From the IMG/VR virus record IMGVR_UViG_3300021963_000580, positions 1 to 25,961 of that record: 25,961 bases of DNA; one strand, written 5' to 3'. The DNA comes from a virus. Shown one piece after another: positions 4,213 through 16,777 of this stretch. Position 1 is the stretch's first letter; each line of letters opens with the position of its first letter. The notes below the pieces were generated by a model, which saw only the letters and a list, made by a program, of their open reading frames with translations, did not search any database and was not told where the DNA came from. The translations under genes and the position numbers were made by a program.

Positions 4213-4446
4213 TTAAGCTGGCCATTTTCCTTTTGGACAGTTGTTTTGTGCAGGTGTTGCTGAAGTAAAGATTTTTCCTTGAAGAGGACATCCGCATGCA
4301 CTACATACTTCAAATCCTACAGCGTTTTTACCTTTAAATTCACAATTTGCACATATTCCGTATCTAATTTCTGCTAATCTTTTTCGAATAGGTGAAGGAT
4401 TCATAGCTGTTGACCAAGCTTCTACTATTTCAAAGATTTTGTTCAT
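4213..4446 (-). CDS. Zinc-ribbon protein, 77 aa (paralogue of the gene at 12743-13045)
   Basis: Two Cys pairs are visible: CANCEF near residues 33-38 and CSACGCPLQGKIF near 48-60, followed by NNCPKGKWPA at the end. This fits a small zinc-binding fold. A second protein in the window shares the same plan: amphipathic start ending in NPxP, then CxxCEF, CxxCGCPxxxKxF, and CPxxKW. The two are clearly related. The later copy has an extra C-terminal tail that this one lacks. A role in nucleic-acid or protein binding is possible but cannot be shown. It sits in a run of small genes directly before the 62-aa membrane protein. Confidence 0.82.
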   Translation of the reverse strand: MNKIFEIVEAWSTAMNPSPIRKRLAEIRYGICANCEFKGKNAVGFEVCSACGCPLQGKIFTSATPAQNNCPKGKWPA

Positions 4447-8067: not shown

Positions 8068-8102
8068 CTTAAGATATGAAAAAATATGATAAGAAACAAC
8101 TA
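8068..8102 (-). promoter_or_regulatory. Promoter P7, TTG-N20-TATCTTAAG, leaderless layout
   Basis: Coding strand reads TAGTTG, 20 nt, TATCTTAAGTATATG. The ATG is that of the 35-aa gene, so initiation 4-6 nt after the box would start the mRNA at or next to the ATG. The -33 box overlaps the stop codon of the sulfotransferase gene upstream. Confidence 0.78.
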
Positions 8103-8675
8103 AATTAGAAATTTATACGCTTCTAATTTATTCCTTCTATACTTATTACTCTTATGTAACATAGGACGGAATGTCTTTCCTACTATACCTACATGTGTAT
8201 CTAATCTATCTAAATCTTCTTCTGTTGAGAATATCTTTTCGTAAGTTGTTTTGAAATCATCTATAAGTTCTACCTCTTTGTATCTATCTTGTAATAAAGA
8301 TACTTGGTAGTTTATGTCTTCTTGTGGGATTTGTTTAGAAGCAAATACATAGGGTGCATGCCAATCTAACATATTACCGCCTGAAGCTGCAAATACAAAA
8401 CTTTCAGCTTGTTCTAAAACATTTTCTCTCCAAAGTATTATTACTTTGTCAAATCTATTTTTTAATTCCGGATACCAATAACCTCCTTGCCCCCATATTG
8501 TTTTTATAACTACATCTTTTCTTTCCCAAATATCATAATCTGTATAACTCTCCTCGAAATACTGACTATCAATATGGAAAGGTTCAAAAATAAATTTAAA
8601 GTTTAAAGACTTAGCTATGTAATCTGCCAAGACTGTTGAGCCGGTTCTTGGAAGTGCATAAACTAGTATACGCAT
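8100..8675 (-). CDS. Sulfotransferase-family protein, 191 aa
   Basis: The start MRILVYALPRTGSTVLADYI carries the 5'-phosphosulfate binding loop (LPRTGST, residues 8-14) of PAPS-dependent sulfotransferases. A 3'-phosphate-binding-like segment RFDKVIILWRENVLEQAESF lies near 74-93 (Arg and Ser in the expected order). The enzyme would move sulfate from PAPS to a sugar, protein or small molecule. It is the last gene of the modification island and overlaps the SGNH hydrolase by 1 bp. An APS kinase 8 kb upstream in the same direction could supply PAPS. The acceptor is unknown. It ends in KFLI, loosely like its neighbours' (T/S)LI endings. Confidence 0.85.
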   Translation of the reverse strand: MRILVYALPRTGSTVLADYIAKSLNFKFIFEPFHIDSQYFEESYTDYDIWERKDVVIKTIWGQGGYWYPELKNRFDKVIILWRENVLEQAESFVFAASGGNMLDWHAPYVFASKQIPQEDINYQVSLLQDRYKEVELIDDFKTTYEKIFSTEEDLDRLDTHVGIVGKTFRPMLHKSNKYRRNKLEAYKFLI

Positions 8676-9463
8676 TATGATCTTTTTAAACTAAAATAAT
8701 CTGGAAAGTTTGTATCAATAAAATTATGCAAATCTGTTGCATATTTTTTATTATGTAAAGGACCTGGGTGACCACCATCTGCTGCAATATCAAGCCATTT
8801 TTTATTGTCCTTTCCATCAAATCTGTTAGATTCTTCATATGAGATAGGTATATTAAACGACCCACTCCATAACCAATTGCATTTCTTTGATTCTAAAAAA
8901 TACTTTATTAATAAATGATTTTTATACCAGTTTATCAAATCTTCATTATGATTTTGTAATTCAAGTGATATAGATTGTATCCTTACACCAGGTAGTGTTT
9001 CTTTTAAATACCCCCATGAACTTGTCGGCATATACGGCTCTACTCCACCGTCCTTTGTATATATCTCTCTTCGTTGAGGTGATGTATACATTATTAAAAC
9101 TAAATCAGGTTTAATTAAATCATAATAAGTTAGAAGACATCTACTCATATAATCGTTACTTCTACCGCCAAATCCAAAATTTAAATCAACAGCATTTGGT
9201 ATCAGTTTACATAATTGATGTGACCATGTTTCATCATCGTTTAATCCAACTCCTTCTGTATTAGAATCACCTATAGACATTACCCTTAATCCTTCTTGTG
9301 TTGGTTCATCTCCTCTAAACCCTAGTGAGTTATAAGTGTAGATACATTTACCTGAAGTATCTGAACCTGATGTATTAAAAGATGCATTAACTCTATTTGC
9401 TAGATGAAATTTGAAAGACGAAACTTCAAAACTTTCTGGATTCCAGTATTTTGGTGTTTTCAT
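8675..9463 (-). CDS. SGNH/GDSL-type hydrolase, 262 aa
   Basis: Block I reads VMSIGDSNTEGVGL, with the nucleophile Ser in GDSN. A Gly block follows (NFGFGGRSND) and the C-terminal catalytic block is DGGHPGPLHN with the Asp-x-x-His pair. These are the hallmarks of SGNH esterases/acyltransferases that act on acetyl groups of glycans. There is no signal peptide, so the enzyme is cytoplasmic or virion-carried. Its ATG overlaps the stop of the 2OG oxygenase (4 bp) and its stop overlaps the sulfotransferase start, indicating tight co-translation. Likely role: remove or add an acyl group on the glycan or protein modified by the island. Confidence 0.85.
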   Translation of the reverse strand: MKTPKYWNPESFEVSSFKFHLANRVNASFNTSGSDTSGKCIYTYNSLGFRGDEPTQEGLRVMSIGDSNTEGVGLNDDETWSHQLCKLIPNAVDLNFGFGGRSNDYMSRCLLTYYDLIKPDLVLIMYTSPQRREIYTKDGGVEPYMPTSSWGYLKETLPGVRIQSISLELQNHNEDLINWYKNHLLIKYFLESKKCNWLWSGSFNIPISYEESNRFDGKDNKKWLDIAADGGHPGPLHNKKYATDLHNFIDTNFPDYFSLKRS

Positions 9464-9960
9464 ATTAACTTACTTGTTTGTAATTTTATATTTTCTCTTT
9501 GTAAAAACCAAAGCAATGAAAAACGTTCTCCATCTAAAATAGGTGTTATCTCATGTTCTATCCTTACATCAAATAAATATGTATTCCCGGCGACTTGACT
9601 TAGGGTCTGTTCATTTGGATTATAAAGTTTAAAATTACCACCTACAAAATTGTCATTTAATAAGACACCGACAGCATATATTCTATTGTCTCGGACGTCA
9701 TTATGTTTTCCAAACCAATCACCTTCTTTAAATTTATGAAAATGTATTTCTGTTTTTAATTTTTTTATTTTTAAACCTGTTTCTAATTCAAAAAACGTTT
9801 TTAATTTATCAAACACCCATTTAGTTTCTAATGTATATTCGATTGGTTGAGAATCATATTTTCTATCTTTCATCCTCCAATTCGTAATATATGTACTATT
9901 ATATAAAGTTATAGACTCACATTCCTCTTTAGTAAATATAACTCTTTCTTCTAATATCAT
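9460..9960 (-). CDS. 2OG-Fe(II) oxygenase (prolyl-4-hydroxylase-like), 166 aa
   Basis: The double-stranded beta-helix signature is complete: FGKHNDVRDN with H86 and D88, the strand GVLLNDNFVGGNFKLYN, distal H136 (RIEHEITP) and R146 (DGERFSLLWF) for 2-oxoglutarate binding. The protein would hydroxylate a side chain or small molecule with O2 and 2OG. It is the minimal catalytic domain. It overlaps the radical SAM gene by 1 bp (TAATG). The C-terminus is TSKLI, one of several similar endings in this island, and the DNA there reads AGTTAATATG into the next start. Confidence 0.87.
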   Translation of the reverse strand: MILEERVIFTKEECESITLYNSTYITNWRMKDRKYDSQPIEYTLETKWVFDKLKTFFELETGLKIKKLKTEIHFHKFKEGDWFGKHNDVRDNRIYAVGVLLNDNFVGGNFKLYNPNEQTLSQVAGNTYLFDVRIEHEITPILDGERFSLLWFLQRENIKLQTSKLI

Positions 9961-11006
9961 TATATTAACGTTTTATTTGTATTATCTATAAACTCATACA
10001 AATTGTGAAATAAGTTTTGATTTTTCCATACTTTATTAAATTCTTTTTTAAATAAATAATGTTCTGGGTGTTCTTCATCCCATACTTGTTTGAGTTTAAA
10101 TTCACCTTCAGAAAATGTTCCCCAATTAGTTATTTTACCAAAAAATACATTTACTTTTTTACCAAAAATAGAATACATCAAATTATAAAATGTTTCCATT
10201 TCGGTATAATTAGAATCTTGTACTACAAATGAAGTCTTTATTTTACTCAATGTTGGTATTGTAGATATAAACTTTAAATTATTCAATAGATTTTCCCAAT
10301 CGCCTCCTAATCTAGTTTTATTCTCATAAGTATCTTTTGTACCTGCATCTATCGATATTTCACAGGTACGTACATACTTATGTATGTTCGGCATACTATC
10401 CCACATCTCTTTATTCCACATTGATGCGTTAGTGTGCAAGTGAATAGATGTTAACTTTGGGTATTTTTTTGGGTTGAATTTTCTTAGATAGTTTCTAAAC
10501 CCAACTGAAACGAAAGGATCTCCGGAACCTGTAATGTATAATGTTTTTACATATCGAGAAAAATATTCATCAATCTCTTCAATTGTTTTCTCAACACGTT
10601 TTATACCTTCACTATTTTCTACAATTAAATCTACTCTACAAGAAGGGCATTTATAGTTGCAAGTTCTATCGAAATTCATAACTAAGTAACTAGGTGAGTT
10701 GTTAGCTACTATTGCAGACTTAATTTTTGAATCGGACTTTGAACTGATTGGACCTGATGTTGTTCCGTAATTTAATAACCTGCTTAAATGTGGGCACATT
10801 TCTCTATCACAATACTTAAAAGAACCATCTAATATTGAATTCCTAATATCAACTAATGGTTCACTGTTGTAAATATCTTTTAGAGGTATTTGGTTAAGTT
10901 CAACTTTATTTGGTAGCCAAGAAGGGCAGCATACAAAACAAACCTTATTGTGTATTTCAAGTGAATTAAACGGTACACTGCATATATAATCTTTCAAGTC
11001 TACCAT
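9960..11006 (-). CDS. Radical SAM enzyme with N-terminal Cys-rich (SPASM-like) region, 348 aa
   Basis: The CxxxCxxC iron-sulfur motif is CNYKCPSC (C116, C120, C123). Downstream are TLYITGSGDPFVS (GGE-like region and beta-strand), SIHLHTNASMW and EISIDAGTKDTYE, all typical of the radical SAM barrel. Before the core are Cys at 9, 23, 26, 27, 66 and 71, in a pattern like the auxiliary-cluster region of SPASM proteins but placed at the N-terminus. The enzyme would do radical chemistry on a peptide or sugar. It lies two genes downstream of the Hint protein with the Cys-rich tail. Its C-terminus is NKTLI and its stop overlaps the next ATG. Confidence 0.88.
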   Translation of the reverse strand: MVDLKDYICSVPFNSLEIHNKVCFVCCPSWLPNKVELNQIPLKDIYNSEPLVDIRNSILDGSFKYCDREMCPHLSRLLNYGTTSGPISSKSDSKIKSAIVANNSPSYLVMNFDRTCNYKCPSCRVDLIVENSEGIKRVEKTIEEIDEYFSRYVKTLYITGSGDPFVSVGFRNYLRKFNPKKYPKLTSIHLHTNASMWNKEMWDSMPNIHKYVRTCEISIDAGTKDTYENKTRLGGDWENLLNNLKFISTIPTLSKIKTSFVVQDSNYTEMETFYNLMYSIFGKKVNVFFGKITNWGTFSEGEFKLKQVWDEEHPEHYLFKKEFNKVWKNQNLFHNLYEFIDNTNKTLI

Positions 11007-11045
11007 CTTATATAACTATTAGTAAAGTAAAAGACTTAGTAGGTA

Positions 11046-11195
11046 TTAACCTTCTAAGTGTTTAACTTTAATTGCAGAAACAACAGCTGAAAATGCTGCT
11101 GCTACCTTTGTTTTTAAATCTGTAGATAATGGGCCAGTTACAACTTTGACTACCTGTTCCTGTCTATTTACTCTCTTTTTTTCTACTTTAGCCAT
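11046..11195 (-). CDS. Small basic protein, 49 aa
   Basis: Translation begins MAKVEKKRVNRQEQVVKVVT and continues with an Ala/Val-rich helix (TKVAAAFSAVVSAIKVKHLE) ending in Gly. It lies between the Hint protein (stop at 11207) and the radical SAM gene (start at 11006), in the same direction. It has no Cys. It may be a small structural or regulatory protein. A peptide substrate for the neighbouring enzymes is only a speculation. Confidence 0.6.
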   Translation of the reverse strand: MAKVEKKRVNRQEQVVKVVTGPLSTDLKTKVAAAFSAVVSAIKVKHLEG

Positions 11196-11206
11196 AATTT
11201 AATTTT

Positions 11207-12688
11207 TTATTTAAAGGATTCTTGACTACATGTTGGACACCAGTTTTGATAACACCAGTTACCACAGTAATAATAACTACACCAACAACTATTATGCATC
11301 ACACTAAAATCTCCATCTCCAATATCAACTAAGAATAAGTCAGAAGGGGCAAAATCAAGTGAATAAATTATTCTAGTTTCATAGACTATTTCTAGGTTAG
11401 TAATTTCTATTGCAGTTAATTCAGTTGTATTAGAATCTGTAATAACTATTTTATCTCCGATATAGCAGTTGTTTATTTGTTCCCATCTAGTTTCGGTAGA
11501 GTCTTTTTCTACAATAAATAAAGTAGACTGCGGAGCCTCTGTCCATGAACGGCCATCTGATAATGTTATTTTTATCATTACTGTTTCTACTGACGACGAT
11601 ACCATCCCGATTAGCTCAGACTGAACTTGTGTTAAAGTGCTATTTGCTTGCTGTAGGTCGCTATTCCATCCAAATGTATGTATTTCACTAGTAAAAGCTG
11701 CTGCTTCGTTTTCGTTAGTATCGATAATATTAATAGAACGGATATAATCACCTAACTTAATAGTATCAATATCTGCTAAAGTACCATCAAATTTTAAAAT
11801 AACTGAATCATCATCAGTATGGTAGTCCGTATAATTTAGTTTTTTTGCAATATCTTTTGTAATATATTTTTGTCTAGTTTTACTATTGAACTTTCTAGTT
11901 TCTAAAAGAAATTCGTCTTCGCTAAATGAAAGTGGTAACCTAGTAGAATGAGTATACCCTCCCATATTAATTATATCTAAATTAGGGCCGTATATAATAT
12001 CAATACTTCTTATTGTTGAATATCTTCCTTCTACAATATTATCTTCAGAATATATAAATTCTTGGGCTAAGTAACCACCCTCAAGAGAATCAGTAATTGT
12101 ATTCAATTGATTTGCGTCAGAAATATTATATACAGCTGGATAGATATTAGTATCATAATCAGGGCTGTTTGCTTTAACTAATAGGTTTGGCTTTACTGAA
12201 GAGTAATCTACTTCGTCTAAAGTATTTAAACTTAACAAATCAGATTGAAAATATGTCTTCGGTATATAAGCAGACCCACTCATCAAGTTAAAAAACTCAA
12301 ACTTATTAGCACAGTACGTATCATCTACTAATGCGGTAGCATCAAATGATTGTCTTAGAATAAATTTAAAGGGTGCATCTTCTATGAAGGGTACTGTAAC
12401 TGATCTTGATGCTACTGTATGCTCGTGAAAAATAATATCGTTTTCCAAACACTTAGCTCGGAGTATATTACGAAAATTATTCTCTTCATTCAAAGGCAAG
12501 TAAGCACTTCCTTCTGTCCATATAAAATGAAACTCTGTAATGCTGTTAGCGATTAGCATACTAAATAATGCTGTATAATCTAATAAATCTGCTCCCCTAT
12601 TAGAAATACAGGTATTTGTATTTATCTCTATAACTTTTACCGAGTCATCTTTTTGTAGTAAATCACTACCAATTATCGTTGCTTTCAT
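11207..12688 (-). CDS. ATP-grasp-like protein with C-terminal Hint-like domain and Cys/Trp/Tyr-rich tail, 493 aa
   Basis: Residues 1-280 resemble an ATP-grasp-like fold: FILRQSFDATALVDDTYCANKFEFF, IPKTYF, PNLLVKANSPDYDTN, GGYLAQEFI and EGRYSTIRSIDIIYG. From about 288 the sequence turns Hint/intein-like: VILKFDGTLADIDTIKLGDY is like intein block A, WEQINNCYIGDKIVI like a later strand, and IIYSLDFAPSDLFLVDIGDG leading to VMHN-SC is like blocks F and G, with H465, N466, S467, C468. The block A Cys/Ser nucleophile and the block B TxxH are not evident, so splicing is unlikely; Asn cyclisation and C-terminal cleavage could still occur. The 27-residue tail holds six Cys, three Trp and four Tyr. It may be a virion protein or a peptide-releasing protein. 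Confidence 0.72.
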   Translation of the reverse strand: MKATIIGSDLLQKDDSVKVIEINTNTCISNRGADLLDYTALFSMLIANSITEFHFIWTEGSAYLPLNEENNFRNILRAKCLENDIIFHEHTVASRSVTVPFIEDAPFKFILRQSFDATALVDDTYCANKFEFFNLMSGSAYIPKTYFQSDLLSLNTLDEVDYSSVKPNLLVKANSPDYDTNIYPAVYNISDANQLNTITDSLEGGYLAQEFIYSEDNIVEGRYSTIRSIDIIYGPNLDIINMGGYTHSTRLPLSFSEDEFLLETRKFNSKTRQKYITKDIAKKLNYTDYHTDDDSVILKFDGTLADIDTIKLGDYIRSINIIDTNENEAAAFTSEIHTFGWNSDLQQANSTLTQVQSELIGMVSSSVETVMIKITLSDGRSWTEAPQSTLFIVEKDSTETRWEQINNCYIGDKIVITDSNTTELTAIEITNLEIVYETRIIYSLDFAPSDLFLVDIGDGDFSVMHNSCWCSYYYCGNWCYQNWCPTCSQESFK

Positions 12689-12706
12689 ATATACGTTTCC
12701 TTTATG

Positions 12707-12718
12707 TATAAATATCCA
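12707..12718 (-). promoter_or_regulatory. Possible ATATTTATA-class promoter box
   Basis: Coding strand GGATATTTATACATAAAGGAAACG precedes the ATG at 12688 by about 20 nt. It matches the box preceding the gene starting at 5264 in the core and in the following AAAC. AAAGGA at 8-13 nt before the ATG could serve as a Shine-Dalgarno. This intergenic gap is the likely start of the Hint/radical SAM transcript. Confidence 0.4.
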
Positions 12719-12742
12719 AACTTAATCTTTAAGTGAGGTATC

Positions 12743-13045
12743 TTATATTAATGTATTATTTTTTTTGTTTTCCGGTGGTTCAATATAATCAGAATCAATT
12801 TCCCCCCACTTTTTTAATGGACAAGCATTATAGTATGGAGAAAATACTTTTCTGCCCATCGGACACCCACACTCACCACAGTAAGCTGACCATTTTAGTC
12901 CTCTTATAGTTTCTTTCCTAAATTCACATCCTGTACAAACTTCTAGTCTTAATTTAGCTAGTTCTTGTTGAGCAGGTGTTGGATTAAAAGCAATTAACCA
13001 AGCTTTAAATATTTCCTTATAGTTAATAGGAGGAGGTATAGTCAT
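12743..13045 (-). CDS. Zinc-ribbon protein, 100 aa (paralogue of the gene at 4213-4446)
   Basis: The plan copies the 77-aa protein: helical start with FNPTPAQQELAKLRLEV, then CTGCEF, CGECGCPMGRKVF and CPLKKW, so two zinc-binding Cys pairs are kept. This copy has an N-terminal MTIPPPINY extension and a C-terminal tail GEIDSDYIEPPENKKNNTLI that the other lacks. The tail ends in NTLI, the ending seen in most unrelated neighbours here. The gene lies 2 bp after a 2OG oxygenase-like gene. Function unknown. Confidence 0.82.
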   Translation of the reverse strand: MTIPPPINYKEIFKAWLIAFNPTPAQQELAKLRLEVCTGCEFRKETIRGLKWSAYCGECGCPMGRKVFSPYYNACPLKKWGEIDSDYIEPPENKKNNTLI

Positions 13046-13047
13046 TT

Positions 13048-13503
13048 TTAAATTAACGTTTTATTAGTTTCAAATAACTTATTATGAAGAAACCCAACTA
13101 ATGTAAATCGTGCACCAACACAGTTTTCTACTTTATGTGCTTCTTCTTTAGTAAAATATACCATAGTTCCTACTTTAGGTGTTATAGATTCATTATCAAA
13201 AATTAATTTACCCCCGGTATAATTATCATTTAGAAAAATAATAAAAGAGTAGTTATTTGAATGATAGTGTTTAGTTTCGACTTGTACGGTACTATCGTCT
13301 ACTAATTGTATTCTAAGTTTTTTGAAGTCGCAACTCTGAAATTCAGTAATAATTTCTATAACTTTGTTTAAATGCGGAAGTAAGTCTACTCCGGAAAAGC
13401 GATAGATATTATCGTCTACACTATTAACATTACCGGCATCCCATAAACTAATAATAGATTGACATTGAGTTGATGTTAAATAGTTTTCAATTATCTTAAT
13501 CAT
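13048..13503 (-). CDS. 2OG-Fe(II) oxygenase-like protein with altered iron motif, 151 aa
   Basis: The fold signature is visible: KHYHSNNYSFIIFLNDNYTGGKLIFDN, then PKVGTMVYFTKEEAHKVENC with distal H123 and VGARFTLVGFL with R132. The first metal motif, normally His-x-Asp, reads HYHSNN here, so the carboxylate ligand is Ser82 or Asn83 or is missing. It may be an inactive homologue, or an iron halogenase-like arrangement in which the Asp is replaced; neither can be decided from sequence. It ends NKTLI, with AAAACGTTAATTTAA running into the next start. Confidence 0.78.
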   Translation of the reverse strand: MIKIIENYLTSTQCQSIISLWDAGNVNSVDDNIYRFSGVDLLPHLNKVIEIITEFQSCDFKKLRIQLVDDSTVQVETKHYHSNNYSFIIFLNDNYTGGKLIFDNESITPKVGTMVYFTKEEAHKVENCVGARFTLVGFLHNKLFETNKTLI

Positions 13504-13504
13504 C

Positions 13505-14266
13505 TTAAATTAACGTAAAACTTGTTTTAGGTATATCGTAATGATTATAAATAGTATCGTATCTGTCTTTGAAATTCTGATCTAATTGTATAGAGCACTC
13601 TATGTTTTGAGTAGAGTTAAGATGTTTTAGTTTAAACTCTTTTCCAATTTTGTTTGAGACCCAATTTTCCATAAGATCTAGTTTATCAATATCAAACCAA
13701 ATAATATCTCTATCATGATTATGCCAATAAGAAGACGGTGTTAAGAGCAAGTTAAATACGTTAACTATATATTCATCGGAATATAATTGCTTAAATCCTG
13801 TTGGTATGCTATATTTTTTAATAAAACTATTCTTTAATAAAAACTCATTTATTACATCTATTCTATTTTCATAAGTAGATAGGTCTTCTTTTTTGAAAAA
13901 AAATAATTCATCTAAACTACAATTTTTTAAAAATAAAGCTGGTTTGATAGCGTAGGCTCTTCTTAAATCCCAAATAATATGTTTAAATAATGAATAGAAG
14001 GTTTCGTACCTATCTCTCTTAACTGCAATTACCGGGTAGTTCTTCCCGAACTTTTTTCTAAGTGTAACTAAAGCTTCATGTCCATGTGTTATAAAGTCCA
14101 TTATTTGATTTTCATCTACGTCTTTGATTTCTACTGTAGCATTTAGATTTTCATATATCGGATACAAGTGTTCTATTTCTAAGTTATATAATTTACAAGA
14201 AACATAAAACGAGGTTGAACCACATCTTGGTAAGCTTATAAATATAAATTTATTATCTACTAACAT
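13505..14266 (-). CDS. Sulfotransferase-family protein, 253 aa
   Basis: The N-terminal FISLPRCGSTSFY (residues 9-21) is the PAPS 5'-phosphosulfate loop. PVIAVKRDRYETFYSLFKH (about 78-96) is the 3'-phosphate-binding region with the expected Arg and Ser. The remainder is helical with IIWFDIDKL near residue 200. It would sulfate a carbohydrate or protein using PAPS. It differs strongly in sequence from the other sulfotransferase in the window, so two acceptor specificities are likely. The C-terminus is TSFTLI. The stop and start are separated from the next gene by one base. Confidence 0.85.
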   Translation of the reverse strand: MLVDNKFIFISLPRCGSTSFYVSCKLYNLEIEHLYPIYENLNATVEIKDVDENQIMDFITHGHEALVTLRKKFGKNYPVIAVKRDRYETFYSLFKHIIWDLRRAYAIKPALFLKNCSLDELFFFKKEDLSTYENRIDVINEFLLKNSFIKKYSIPTGFKQLYSDEYIVNVFNLLLTPSSYWHNHDRDIIWFDIDKLDLMENWVSNKIGKEFKLKHLNSTQNIECSIQLDQNFKDRYDTIYNHYDIPKTSFTLI

Positions 14267-14886
14267 TAGATCAACGATTTTTGAAAATGCTTAAATTTTG
14301 CTGCAAAATTAAAATTTATAATAAACCTATCTCCATCAGTAGGGTAAGTACCGTAATGTGCTAGGTTACCGTCAAATACAACACATCTACCCGCCTTAGG
14401 TAATACTTCTGTTAATAAAGTATATGAGTTGTAATCTACTCCGTTAAAATCTTTTTTAAGCATCTCTGCATTATTTCCATTAATATTATTAAAAATGCAA
14501 GTACCACCGGTAGAATTATTAATATAATAAACCATAGCAATATGGTTTTTATTATCATCACAATGTAACAAATCCATTGGATTATAATCTTCAATAGGTG
14601 AAGTCCAGTTAATTTTCCATCTATAATTTTTAATAAATTCTAAATTCAAATTTTCTGTAACAGCTATTTGCATATTATCAATTATACGAATAATTTCACC
14701 ATTTTTACAATTTGTATTTTGTGAAACTTTTGCTGGAAATTTATGTGTTTCGGATTTCCCTCCATATTGACCGGTAATGTTTTCTACTGATACCCATTCT
14801 ATATCACTACTTTTAACATAATCGTTTAAAATTTTTTGTTCTTCTGCTGGTATTATATTATCAAATACATAATAATTTCCTATCAT
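14266..14886 (-). CDS. 2OG-Fe(II) oxygenase, 206 aa
   Basis: The active-site residues are complete: LLHCDDNKNH with H108 and D110, followed by MVYYINNSTGGTCIF, then AGRCVVFDGNLAHYGTYPTDGDRF with H177 and R187. This is a standard Fe(II)/2-oxoglutarate hydroxylase domain, close to the prolyl 4-hydroxylase group. It overlaps the sulfotransferase start by 1 bp and the next 2OG gene by 4 bp. The C-terminus is FQKSLI. Substrate unknown; co-location suggests it acts on the same molecule as its neighbours. Confidence 0.87.
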   Translation of the reverse strand: MIGNYYVFDNIIPAEEQKILNDYVKSSDIEWVSVENITGQYGGKSETHKFPAKVSQNTNCKNGEIIRIIDNMQIAVTENLNLEFIKNYRWKINWTSPIEDYNPMDLLHCDDNKNHIAMVYYINNSTGGTCIFNNINGNNAEMLKKDFNGVDYNSYTLLTEVLPKAGRCVVFDGNLAHYGTYPTDGDRFIINFNFAAKFKHFQKSLI

Positions 14887-15536
14887 AGTAAGCTTTTTTC
14901 TTTTTTGATATAATCAAATCCAACATTACCTGCTATAACGATTCTGTCAATAGTAGAATTTGGTGCGTTATTTGGTGCGTGTGGCATATCCGCTTCCATT
15001 ATAATTAAGTCATCTTCTTCTGGTTTTACCCAGTATTCTTTTTTATTTTTACCTCTAAAATATAAAACTCCATCTTCACCGTTCATTACATCCGGCATCT
15101 GTATATAATAAACGTAGGTGTAATGAGGATAAAAATCATCATGATTTCTATTAATATCGGTATGTGTATGAAACTTATCTACTCCTGTAATTACATCATG
15201 CTTAAATTGAAGTTGTATAGGATCTACCGAACGTACCACATTAACCCATGCGTCAGTATTGACTTTATTATACTTAGTGTTAGTTTCCTCCCATAGTTTT
15301 TTACATTCGTCTATACCTTTTTGAATTATACTATCTAAGTAATTTTGTATATTAATACTACCTGTAAAATTCAAATCATGATTCCGTATTTTAATATATC
15401 CAAATCCATCTGTAGTATTTTTCGGCACAGATTTTATTACTTTTTCAGCTTCTTCCAATAAGATAGCTCTATCTGAAACTCTACCTAATTTAGTTTTCCA
15501 TATGTATGTAGTTTCGTCGAAATATATCTTTTCCAT
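14883..15536 (-). CDS. 2OG-Fe(II) oxygenase, 217 aa
   Basis: The metal motif is KFHTHTDINRNHDDFYPHYT with H125 and D127, then the strand YVYYIQMP. The distal His is in EADMPHAPNNAP (H186) and the 2OG-binding Arg in STIDRIVIAGNVGF (R198). It belongs to a different subgroup from the preceding two oxygenases. Its start lies 2 bp after the DUF2061 stop. It ends KSLL rather than SLI. It would hydroxylate an unknown substrate, probably the island's target. Confidence 0.85.
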   Translation of the reverse strand: MEKIYFDETTYIWKTKLGRVSDRAILLEEAEKVIKSVPKNTTDGFGYIKIRNHDLNFTGSINIQNYLDSIIQKGIDECKKLWEETNTKYNKVNTDAWVNVVRSVDPIQLQFKHDVITGVDKFHTHTDINRNHDDFYPHYTYVYYIQMPDVMNGEDGVLYFRGKNKKEYWVKPEEDDLIIMEADMPHAPNNAPNSTIDRIVIAGNVGFDYIKKEKSLL

Positions 15537-15537
15537 A

Positions 15538-15750
15538 CTATTTTTGTTTTTTCAATCCGTATTTAATATACTGATACCAAACTCTTTCATGTAGAAAATA
15601 AATTATTGGTTTTATTATTAATTCTGCTAAACCTACTACACCTGCCCATTTTATAGGAAGTCCGGCAAATAAGGTTAATATAATAGTAGTTATAGTTCCA
15701 ATAAAGCGATAACTAATACTTTTTGCTATATGTCTTTTTACTAACGGCAT
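15538..15750 (-). CDS. DUF2061 small membrane protein, 70 aa
   Basis: The sequence matches the DUF2061 pattern: basic start, KSISYRFIGTITTIILTLFA, GVVGLAELIIKPIIYFLHER and VWYQYIKYG. Two membrane helices are likely. From general knowledge, DUF2061 is often found beside, or fused to, APS kinase (cysC) in sulfate-assimilation loci; here cysC lies only about 600 bp upstream. Its molecular role is unproven. Its presence strengthens the view that this stretch handles activated sulfate. Confidence 0.88.
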   Translation of the reverse strand: MPLVKRHIAKSISYRFIGTITTIILTLFAGLPIKWAGVVGLAELIIKPIIYFLHERVWYQYIKYGLKKQK

Positions 15751-15760
15751 TATAACATAT

Positions 15761-15919
15761 TTACTTTACCCAGTCGTTAAATGCCTCTTCATAGGCAGAT
15801 ACTTTATCTCTATTAGGATCTTCTTCTATAAGTTTTTTAGCAGCATCTAATACTTCTCTCCATAATCCATATGAATGAGCTTCTAAAAGAATTTCTTCTA
15901 TTTGTTCTTCTGTTGTCAT
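15761..15919 (-). CDS. Small acidic protein, 52 aa
   Basis: Translation begins MTTEEQIEEILLEAHSYGLW and ends SAYEEAFNDWVK. It is helical and acidic, with no metal or membrane motif. Its ATG overlaps the stop of the nucleotidyltransferase gene (ATGA), so the two are translated together; the stop lies 10 bp before the DUF2061 start. It may be a small partner of the nucleotidyltransferase. Unknown family. Confidence 0.65.
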   Translation of the reverse strand: MTTEEQIEEILLEAHSYGLWREVLDAAKKLIEEDPNRDKVSAYEEAFNDWVK

Positions 15920-16317
15920 AGTTTACCTTCTTCTTTCATTTTATTTCTTATGCCTGTTGCTGAGATATCTCTAATCTCCTCTGGAGGTACATGTTCAATA
16001 ACATCATATCCAACTCCTCTTCCTATATTAATAGATTCTATATCAGGAATGATCATAAGTCTTACTCTTCCTTCCTCAATGAGATCCATTAATTCTTCTG
16101 TAAGCATCATCATAATTTGGTATGCAGACCAAGGATTCTTTTCATCTTCTTTGACATCTCTTACACACAGTAAAACTTTCTTTCCTTGATTTAATTGTTG
16201 ATCAATCAACCATCTGTGCCCTTTATGCCATGGTTGCCATCTGCCAATAAACATAGAATACTTTACTTCATTAGATGAAGACTGAAATGCGGCAGTTGCT
16301 AAATAATTTGTACTCAT
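15916..16317 (-). CDS. HxGH nucleotidyltransferase, 133 aa
   Basis: The HxGH motif is FIGRWQPWHKGHRWLI (residues 31-34 HKGH), followed by KKVLLCVRDVKEDEKNPW, and the C-terminal ISATGIRNKM matches the second motif (ISxTxxR). This is the cytidylyl/adenylyl-transferase fold used by NMN adenylyltransferase and, in larger form, ATP sulfurylase. Its position beside APS kinase suggests a role in sulfate or nucleotide activation, but at 133 aa it is far shorter than a known ATP sulfurylase (about 400 aa). Promoter P10 lies right before the ATG. A start at M22 is also possible. Confidence 0.82.
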   Translation of the reverse strand: MSTNYLATAAFQSSSNEVKYSMFIGRWQPWHKGHRWLIDQQLNQGKKVLLCVRDVKEDEKNPWSAYQIMMMLTEELMDLIEEGRVRLMIIPDIESINIGRGVGYDVIEHVPPEEIRDISATGIRNKMKEEGKL

Positions 16318-16319
16318 AT

Positions 16320-16354
16320 TACAATGTACGAACTTTACTTTAAAGCTCCAACTT
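16320..16354 (-). promoter_or_regulatory. Promoter P10, TTG-N20-TACATTGTA, leaderless layout
   Basis: Coding strand reads AAGTTG, 20 nt ending TTCG, then TACATTGTAATATG. The ATG is that of the nucleotidyltransferase, so the mRNA would start at or next to it. The box lies within the 3' end of the APS kinase gene, giving the sulfate block an internal promoter. Confidence 0.72.
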
Positions 16355-16777
16355 ATCTACTAATTCTCTATAAGTATAGAAAGGATCTTTATCTGTAGTA
16401 TCGACATCTAGATAATTTTCTAAAGGCGGTTCGTAATTTTCTACATGAAAATGATTACGCCCTCTGTCTTCAGACGTATGAACATACAACTCAATTAAAT
16501 CTTTTCCTAATCTAGCTTTAAAAGCTTCTCGTTGGTCTCGATAAGGAGATACTACAGACACAAATACACAGTATCCTTTTTCGTTTAGGAAGTAAGATAT
16601 ATTCTGAGCTAGTTCTATATTCTTTCTCCTTCCAGCTTCTGAATAGTCTTTGTTCTCAAAAATCTCTCTAATATCGTCTCCGTCAACTGTTATAGCTGAT
16701 TGATGTACGTGCACCTTCAATGAGGTGGCTAGCGTAGTCTTTCCAGCTCCAGGCTGGCCTGTAAACCAATATATCAT
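16340..16777 (-). CDS. cysC: Adenylyl-sulfate (APS) kinase, 145 aa
   Basis: Walker A is GQPGAGKTT at residues 7-15, then VDGDDIREIF (the APS-kinase VDGD), YSEAGRRKNIELAQNISYFL and VFVSVVSPYRDQREAFKARL. These are the diagnostic blocks of the enzyme that makes PAPS from APS and ATP. The start at 16777 is preferred because its ATG overlaps the upstream gene's TGA, as in most junctions here; the upstream ATG at 16819 would overlap the previous gene by 46 bp. It is shorter than cellular CysC (about 200 aa), mainly by lacking the segment after the 'VxT' strand. Two sulfotransferases downstream are the natural users of its product. Confidence 0.87.
   Translation of the reverse strand: MIYWFTGQPGAGKTTLATSLKVHVHQSAITVDGDDIREIFENKDYSEAGRRKNIELAQNISYFLNEKGYCVFVSVVSPYRDQREAFKARLGKDLIELYVHTSEDRGRNHFHVENYEPPLENYLDVDTTDKDPFYTYRELVDKLEL

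What the first reader, a model, noticed from the sequence alone, without database searches (positions are those of the whole stretch)
11207..12688. Hint-like domain placed to release a Cys/Trp/Tyr-rich C-terminal peptide
Seen: residues about 288-466 show intein/Hint-like blocks, ending with H465-N466 directly before S467-C468. The 27 residues after N466 hold six Cys, three Trp and four Tyr, with CxC and CPTC spacing. Known: inteins cleave at the Asn of a His-Asn/Ser-Cys junction. Inference: the domain may cut off, or attach, the tail after folding. The block A Cys and block B TxxH are not evident, so full splicing is unlikely. The joining of an ATP-grasp-like front, a Hint domain and such a tail is unusual, and could be a virion protein or a peptide system.
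Basis: partly seen in the sequence, partly recalled or inferred. Interest (0 to 1): 0.8.

Follow-up and report, generated by a model that had tools for sequence, protein, structure and literature searches.

The report
Phage Hint protein with Cys-rich tail
A family of uncultured phages, most likely of Flavobacteria, carries a protein whose intein-like domain keeps only the parts needed to cut off a short cysteine-, tryptophan- and tyrosine-rich tail, and it sits among tailoring enzymes that share one C-terminal tag, which suggests an undescribed viral system for making a modified peptide or virion tip.

Summary
The 493-aa ORF (minus strand) has a Hint fold: AlphaFold2 plus Foldseek give only inteins, hedgehog and BIL domains as top hits. 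It is followed by H465-N466 and a 27-aa tail with 6 Cys, 3 Trp, 4 Tyr. Every distinct homologue keeps HN and a Cys-rich tail: 71 short tails, plus a 24%-identical branch (AGH2) with 67-109-aa hypervariable Cys-rich tails, mostly followed by an S74-type self-cleaving chaperone. Across both branches only Y442, D450, F452, H465 and N466 are invariant in the Hint domain; position 1, block B and residue +1 vary. So splicing is excluded and C-terminal Asn cleavage is the only chemistry left to conserve; cleavage itself is unproven. The gene lies in a conserved operon with 2OG oxygenases, weakly assigned sulfotransferases, a Zn-ribbon-like protein, Trp halogenase or radical SAM, and APS kinase. Unexpectedly, nearly all tailoring enzymes end in K-[TS]-[LI]-[IL]; the tag is cluster-specific and peptide-level, and AGH itself lacks it. 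Best reading: AGH carries a peptide that tagged enzymes modify, freed by Hint (and S74 where present). Main rival: a disulfide-rich virion tip. New variant of a known kind (Hint autoprocessing, RiPP-like), possibly more.

The parts
11207..12688 (-). AGH gene: ATP-grasp-like front, Hint domain, Cys/Trp/Tyr-rich tail (493 aa)
11840..12688 (-). Front domain, residues 1-283; ATP-grasp-like, E-x-N motif near the N-terminus (possible circular permutation)
   Evidence: AF2 pLDDT 84, pTM 0.80; Foldseek best hit gamma-glutamylcysteine synthetase 3k1t, E 4e-4; E21, N23, K172, E210, R227, D230 invariant across both branches
11291..11824 (-). Hint domain, residues 289-466, ending H465-N466
11210..11290 (-). 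Tail peptide, residues 467-493 (SCWCSYYYCGNWCYQNWCPTCSQESFK)
   Evidence: conserved CxCx4CGx2Cx4Cx2C pattern; not found on any other kind of protein
12743..13045 (-). Small Cys-rich (zinc-ribbon-like) protein next to AGH, ends NNTLI (tag)
   Evidence: 72/81 loci; alignment; tag
13048..13503 (-). 2OG-Fe(II) oxygenase, ends NKTLI (tag)
   Evidence: Pfam E 3.5e-8
13505..14266 (-). ST1, sulfotransferase-like by its LPRCGSTSF loop (weak assignment), ends SFTLI (tag)
   Evidence: 73/81 loci; weak Pfam and PDB support
14266..14886 (-). 2OG-Fe(II) oxygenase-like, ends QKSLI (tag)
14883..15536 (-). 2OG-Fe(II) oxygenase-like (2OGb), ends KSLL (tag)
   Evidence: 67/81 loci
15538..15750 (-). DUF2061 membrane protein, no tag
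   Evidence: Pfam E 4.5e-13
15916..16317 (-). Cytidylyltransferase-like protein, no tag
   Evidence: Pfam E 2e-4
16340..16777 (-). APS kinase (would supply PAPS), no tag
   Evidence: Pfam E 1.3e-18
9960..11006 (-). Radical SAM protein, ends NKTLI (tag)
   Evidence: Pfam E 8.6e-9
9460..9960 (-). 2OG-Fe(II) oxygenase-like, ends TSKLI (tag)
   Evidence: PHROG E 8e-12
8675..9463 (-). SGNH/GDSL-like protein (no tag in this phage)
   Evidence: a cluster member has weak Lipase_GDSL and DUF6071 matches
8100..8675 (-). ST2, sulfotransferase-like, ends KFLI (tag-like)
   Evidence: profile hit to NodH sulfotransferase E 0.0025; Stf0 E 4.6e-4 in 2 members

Best explanation
AGH is the precursor (carrier) protein of a phage-encoded peptide-maturation pathway. 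Shown: a Hint fold, an invariant His-Asn end, a conserved Cys/Trp/Tyr-rich tail, a conserved operon of modifying enzymes, and a shared C-terminal tag on those enzymes. Inferred: (1) the tagged enzymes (2OG oxygenases, halogenase or radical SAM, sulfotransferase-like proteins) dock through their K-[TS]-[LI]-[IL] C-termini onto a common partner, most simply AGH, which itself lacks the tag; (2) they modify Trp/Tyr/Pro/Cys of the tail; (3) the Hint domain then cleaves after Asn466 by Asn cyclisation, helped by H465 and by D450 at the place of the usual block F histidine, freeing a 25-33-residue disulfide-rich peptide. In the AGH2 branch an S74 Ser-Lys self-cleaving domain would cut the other end. 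The front may be an active ATP-grasp ligase acting in the same pathway.
For: Hint fold. HN kept in all 65 distinct main-branch tails and all 17 AGH2 sequences. In the whole Hint domain only Y442, D450, F452, H465 and N466 are invariant across AGH1+AGH2, while position 1, block B and +1 vary; these are the C-side residues of intein chemistry (PMC4031507). Tail: 68 of 71 distinct tails have 6 Cys, two have 8, one has 9; all 17 AGH2 tails have an even number (6, 8 or 10), which fits disulfide pairing. AGH2: S74-like domain with Ser and Lys five residues apart directly after ..CNxQK(P), as in endoNF S911/K916 and MyRF S587/K592 (PMC8326128); two AGH2 without S74 end at or just after that point. 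One main-branch tail is also followed by S74. Operon; Trp halogenase Pfam E 1.9e-91. Tag: positions -2 and -1 are L or I in about 96% of 412 distinct C-termini; enrichment 6/11 vs 5/362 and 8/9 vs 7/255 genes in two large phage records (p 6e-8, 1e-10); kept when the next gene is >50 nt away (40/50); Ile/Leu codons match internal usage where the gap is >15 nt, so it is peptide-level; several homologues outside the cluster lack it.
Against: No cleavage or modification has been observed. Residue +1 is Pro in 6 of 65 distinct tails, which should hinder cleavage (own knowledge). The block F histidine is Asp. The S74 module normally serves trimeric tail fibres and spikes, so the protein may stay intact in a virion. 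The halogenase is present in only 43 of 81 loci and tails without it still have Trp. The sulfotransferase assignments are weak. AF2 gives no structure for the tail. That the tag binds AGH is a guess.
Confidence: 0.45

Rival explanations
1. AGH is a virion (tail fibre or baseplate) protein. The Cys-rich tail is a disulfide-bonded receptor-binding tip that stays attached; the enzymes decorate it or other surface parts; the Hint domain is a structural remnant and S74 an assembly chaperone.
For: S74-type domains in AGH2 and in one main-branch locus; the AGH2 tail is the most variable region (pairwise identity 0.32 vs 0.58 front, 0.52 S74), as in adhesins; long fibre-like genes follow the cluster in some loci (cluster c20); Hint domains occur in other virion proteins.
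Against: An inert Hint would not be expected to keep exactly HN, D450 and Y442 over 24% identity while losing all N-side chemistry; the front keeps ATP-grasp-type residues, odd for a fibre; in the main branch the tail is short and conserved, and nearly always lacks S74.
Confidence: 0.3
2. Hint-released toxin or effector: constant front + Hint + variable C-terminal toxin, as in polymorphic toxins, acting on the host or on competitors.
For: Domain order and C-terminal variability resemble toxins with a HINT peptidase just upstream of the toxin domain (PMC3482391).
Against: No known toxin domain in the tail; no obvious immunity gene; the main-branch tail is conserved and short.
Confidence: 0.1
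3. The tail is a metal-binding (Zn or Fe-S) appendix of an ATP-grasp enzyme in a surface-glycan modification cluster; no cleavage occurs.
For: Regular Cys spacing; CPxC motifs; a sugar gene in some loci; the related isolated Immutovirus carries a glycosylation cluster.
Against: In AGH2 the Cys number and spacing change freely but stay even, which fits disulfides better than one metal site; HN invariance is unexplained.
Confidence: 0.1
4. The shared C-termini are a DNA-level signal (ribosome binding or translational coupling), not a peptide tag.
For: Many genes overlap or abut the next start, and ATA codons are enriched there.
Against: The motif persists with gaps >50 nt, with ordinary codon usage, in the cluster only, and is absent from 96 ORFs of an isolated relative.
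Confidence: 0.05

Closest known systems
Bacterial intein-like (BIL) domains and inteins
   Same: Hint fold; His-Asn at the C-side; C-terminal cleavage is a known partial reaction
   Different: No Cys/Ser1 and no TxxH in the main branch (His290, Pro386); block F His is Asp; +1 not conserved; fused to an ATP-grasp-like front
Polymorphic toxins with HINT releasing peptidase (PMC3482391)
   Same: Hint placed directly before a C-terminal segment, variable in AGH2
   Different: No toxin domain or immunity gene recognised; operon of tailoring enzymes; phage location
RiPP pathways with flavin-dependent Trp halogenase (SrpI/proteusins, PMC10858898)
   Same: Long structured leader-like part, Cys/Trp-containing C-terminal segment, halogenase and other tailoring enzymes in one operon
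   Different: Precursor is itself an ATP-grasp-Hint protein; enzymes share a C-terminal tag; no YcaO or RRE was noted (not searched for); product unknown
Peptidase S74 / intramolecular chaperone (endosialidase, T5 fibre, MyRF; PMC8326128)
   Same: AGH2 C-terminus with Ser-Lys dyad spacing
   Different: Follows a Hint-Cys-rich region rather than a beta-helix; absent in the window protein

Membership tests
Hint superfamily (fold) | Hint fold | tested here: met
   Foldseek PDB top 50 all Hint proteins, best E 6.8e-8, target TM up to 0.79
Splicing intein | Cys/Ser (class 2/3 variants aside) at position 1 with TxxH in block B | tested here: not met
   His290 60/60, Pro386 58/60 in the main branch
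Splicing intein | Cys/Ser/Thr at +1 | tested here: not met
   G, A, P or F in 24 of 65 distinct tails; Y/F in AGH2
Hint with C-terminal Asn cleavage (BIL-like) | Invariant His-Asn at the end of the domain | tested here: met
   65/65 and 17/17
Hint with C-terminal Asn cleavage (BIL-like) | Cleavage after Asn in the protein | not testable with these tools
   needs mass spectrometry
ATP-grasp ligase | ATP-grasp fold | tested here: inconclusive
   best Foldseek hit is an ATP-grasp-type ligase, E 4e-4, but TM 0.38 and little else
ATP-grasp ligase | Conserved ATP/Mg-binding residues | tested here: met
   E21-x-N23, K172, E210, R227, D230 invariant over both branches; their roles are assigned by analogy
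Peptidase S74 (AGH2 only) | Ser-Lys dyad, Lys five residues after Ser | tested here: met
   15 of 17 distinct AGH2, the other two lacking the domain; Pfam match only weak, E 0.018
RiPP pathway | Peptide core modified by operon enzymes | not testable with these tools
   only gene linkage seen
Phage tail fibre | Present in the virion | not testable with these tools
   needs virion proteomics

The most novel reading that the evidence does not exclude
A phage-encoded, tag-organised peptide factory: unrelated tailoring enzymes share a C-terminal K-[TS]-[LI]-[IL] docking tag that recruits them to an ATP-grasp-Hint precursor, whose disulfide-rich tail is modified (for example hydroxylated, halogenated, sulfated) and then cut free by Hint on one side and, in the sister branch, by S74 on the other. 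I found neither the shared tag nor the double self-excision described for any known peptide pathway.
Probability: 0.3. Interest if true: 0.92.

Novelty: new variant of a known kind. Interest (0 to 1): 0.75.

Why it matters
It would show that phages carry their own pathway for a post-translationally modified, disulfide-rich peptide or virion tip, with a very simple recruiting rule (a shared C-terminal tetrapeptide) that could be transferred to other enzymes. It could also suggest substrates for the many 2OG oxygenase, halogenase and sulfotransferase-like genes in aquatic phages. The claims are testable in the laboratory: expression of one gene tells whether Asn466 is cut, and co-expression with tagged enzymes tells whether the tail is the substrate.

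Tried and rejected
Sequence HMMs against Pfam, PDB and PHROGs did not detect the Hint or ATP-grasp parts; only structure did. No relative in 50,697 phage records; none confirmed in bacterial genomes, by one pattern scan only. The idea that the shared C-termini are a ribosome-binding signal was tested and rejected. A link between halogenase and Pro471 in the tail (22/23 with, 1/10 without) is confounded by descent and contradicted by L010 and L079, so it is not used. Cyanophage and pelagiphage regions with halogenase and 2OG genes were checked for similar tails or tags: none. Search for ST1 loci without AGH: none except one at a contig end. Splicing and peptide ligation rejected from +1 variability. 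Literature: no paper in the held library mentions ATP-grasp together with Hint domain; other searches showed no description of this system in their titles and abstracts.

Full report
Observation. The ORF at 11207-12688 lies on the minus strand and encodes 493 residues (the plus strand has no such frame). The tail after N466 is SCWCSYYYCGNWCYQNWCPTCSQESFK, with exactly the Cys, Trp and Tyr counts given. AlphaFold2 on a 53-sequence alignment of the whole protein gives mean pLDDT 72 and pTM 0.49, with the tail disordered. Foldseek against the PDB returns inteins, hedgehog and BIL domains as all of the top 50 hits, best E 7e-8, target TM up to 0.79. Viral models include Hint proteins too. Sequence profiles alone do not find the fold.

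Front. Residues 1-283 fold with pLDDT 84 and pTM 0.80. The only PDB match at E below 0.001 is gamma-glutamylcysteine synthetase 3k1t, an ATP-grasp-type ligase, with low TM. E21-x-N23, K172, Q209-E210, R227 and D230 are invariant across both branches. The position of E-x-N at the N-terminus suggests a circular permutation; this is an inference.

Family. The protein has more than 80 relatives at 42-77% identity in IMG/VR, none in annotated phages, and none found in one pattern scan of bacterial genomes. In 60 distinct sequences H465 and N466 never vary; intein position 1 is His290 in all 60, and the block B His position is Pro386 in 58. In 65 distinct tails +1 is S33, G12, T8, P6, A5, F1. A later survey counts 71 distinct tails: 68 with six Cys, two with eight, one with nine.

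Sister branch. A scan with the neighbour ST1 led to L337, a 645-aa homologue with 24.5% identity, and a further scan gave 20 loci of this branch, 17 distinct. They keep THN[YF], then 67-109 residues with 6, 8 or 10 Cys, always even, then in 15 of 17 a ..K or ..P followed by SDxxxK of an S74-like domain. The Ser-Lys spacing is that of endoNF S911/K916 and MyRF S587/K592 (PMC8326128). The Pfam score is weak (E 0.018). The two without S74 end at or shortly after the same point. A main-branch tail in L148 is also followed by S74. Pairwise identity is 0.58 front, 0.43 Hint, 0.32 tail, 0.52 S74. In a joint alignment of both branches the only invariant Hint positions are Y442, D450, F452, H465 and N466. 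In intein terms these are block F and block G, which serve Asn cyclisation; PMC4031507 notes His at F:13 and G:6 as helpers, not required in all inteins. D450 stands where His F:13 usually is, by my alignment.

Operon. Over 81 loci (80 plus the window), many cut by contig ends, the neighbours are: 2OG oxygenases in 80, ST1 in 73, Zn-ribbon-like protein in 72, 2OGb in 67, ST2 in 66, SGNH in 51, Trp halogenase in 43, DUF2061 in 33, cytidylyltransferase-like in 30, APS kinase in 21, radical SAM in 19, in near-constant order. Pfam supports halogenase, radical SAM, APS kinase, DUF2061 and 2OG domains. ST1 and ST2 are sulfotransferase-like by motif and weak profile hits only. Among the new ST1 loci that I inspected the only one without AGH ends at a contig edge.

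Tag. Nearly all these enzymes end in the same kind of tetrapeptide. Fractions ending in two aliphatic (or Phe/Met) residues: 2OG 160/162, ST1 82/82, ST2 72/75, Zn-ribbon 72/73, 2OGb 66/67, SGNH 56/64, halogenase 43/43, radical SAM 18/19. In 412 distinct C-termini the positions -4 to -1 are mostly K/N, T/S/K, L/I, I/L. In two large phage records 6 of 11 and 8 of 9 cluster genes have the motif against 5 of 362 and 7 of 255 others. The motif is kept with gaps over 50 nt to the next gene (40/50) and codons are then as inside the genes (ATA 0.52 vs 0.47 for gaps over 15 nt). Of homologues outside the clusters, a 2OG protein and a radical SAM protein lack it, while SGNH proteins and one ST2 just outside have similar ends; 96 ORFs of an Immutovirus have none. 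In the window, the Zn-ribbon paralogue at 4213-4446 lacks it. AGH, DUF2061, APS kinase and the cytidylyltransferase-like protein of the window lack it.

Host. A DUF932 protein of the window is 68% identical to that of Flavobacterium phage immuto, a phage with T4-like gp20- and gp23-type genes. The AGH family itself is absent there by tblastn. So the phage most likely infects Flavobacteria and AGH is an accessory island; this is an inference.

Interpretation. Conservation of HN with loss of every N-side feature argues that C-terminal cleavage after Asn466 is under selection. Even Cys numbers argue for disulfides. Operon and tag argue that many enzymes act together, most simply on AGH, which lacks the tag. 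Flavin halogenation of a C-terminal Trp behind a long leader has a precedent in SrpI/proteusins (PMC10858898), and Hint release of a C-terminal segment in polymorphic toxins (PMC3482391). The S74 module and the variable AGH2 tail keep the virion-tip model alive. Shown: fold, conservation, linkage, tag. Inferred: cleavage, modification, docking, product.

Noticed in passing
window 8100-15536 and homologous loci: Shared C-terminal tetrapeptide K-[TS]-[LI]-[IL] on unrelated enzymes; became part of the finding.
   Followed up: yes
window 4213-4446 (-): Second Zn-ribbon-like protein, 39% identical to the cluster one, outside the cluster and without the C-terminal tag.
   Followed up: partly
L112 988-2247 (record G001, about 163 kb): A virion-type protein with an apparently more complete Hint domain (Cys at block A, TAEHP, THNK) in the same phage as an AGH.
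   Followed up: partly
G002:C1:27078-28361: A glycosyltransferase-like gene (by eye) far from the cluster that carries the tag (KKDQTLI).
   Followed up: no
G001:C1:38608-38967: A 119-aa protein of unknown function some 12 kb from AGH that carries the tag (KSKKTLI).
   Followed up: no
Pelagibacter phage HTVC008M and cyanophage P-SSM2 (L255, L256): Trp halogenase and 2OG or phytanoyl-CoA-dioxygenase genes also sit together or near structural genes there, without AGH or tag.
   Followed up: partly
L342, L344, L348, L356, L360, L361: AGH2 loci with ST1-type genes ending KTLF/KTFF: the tag drifts to Phe in some lineages.
   Followed up: no
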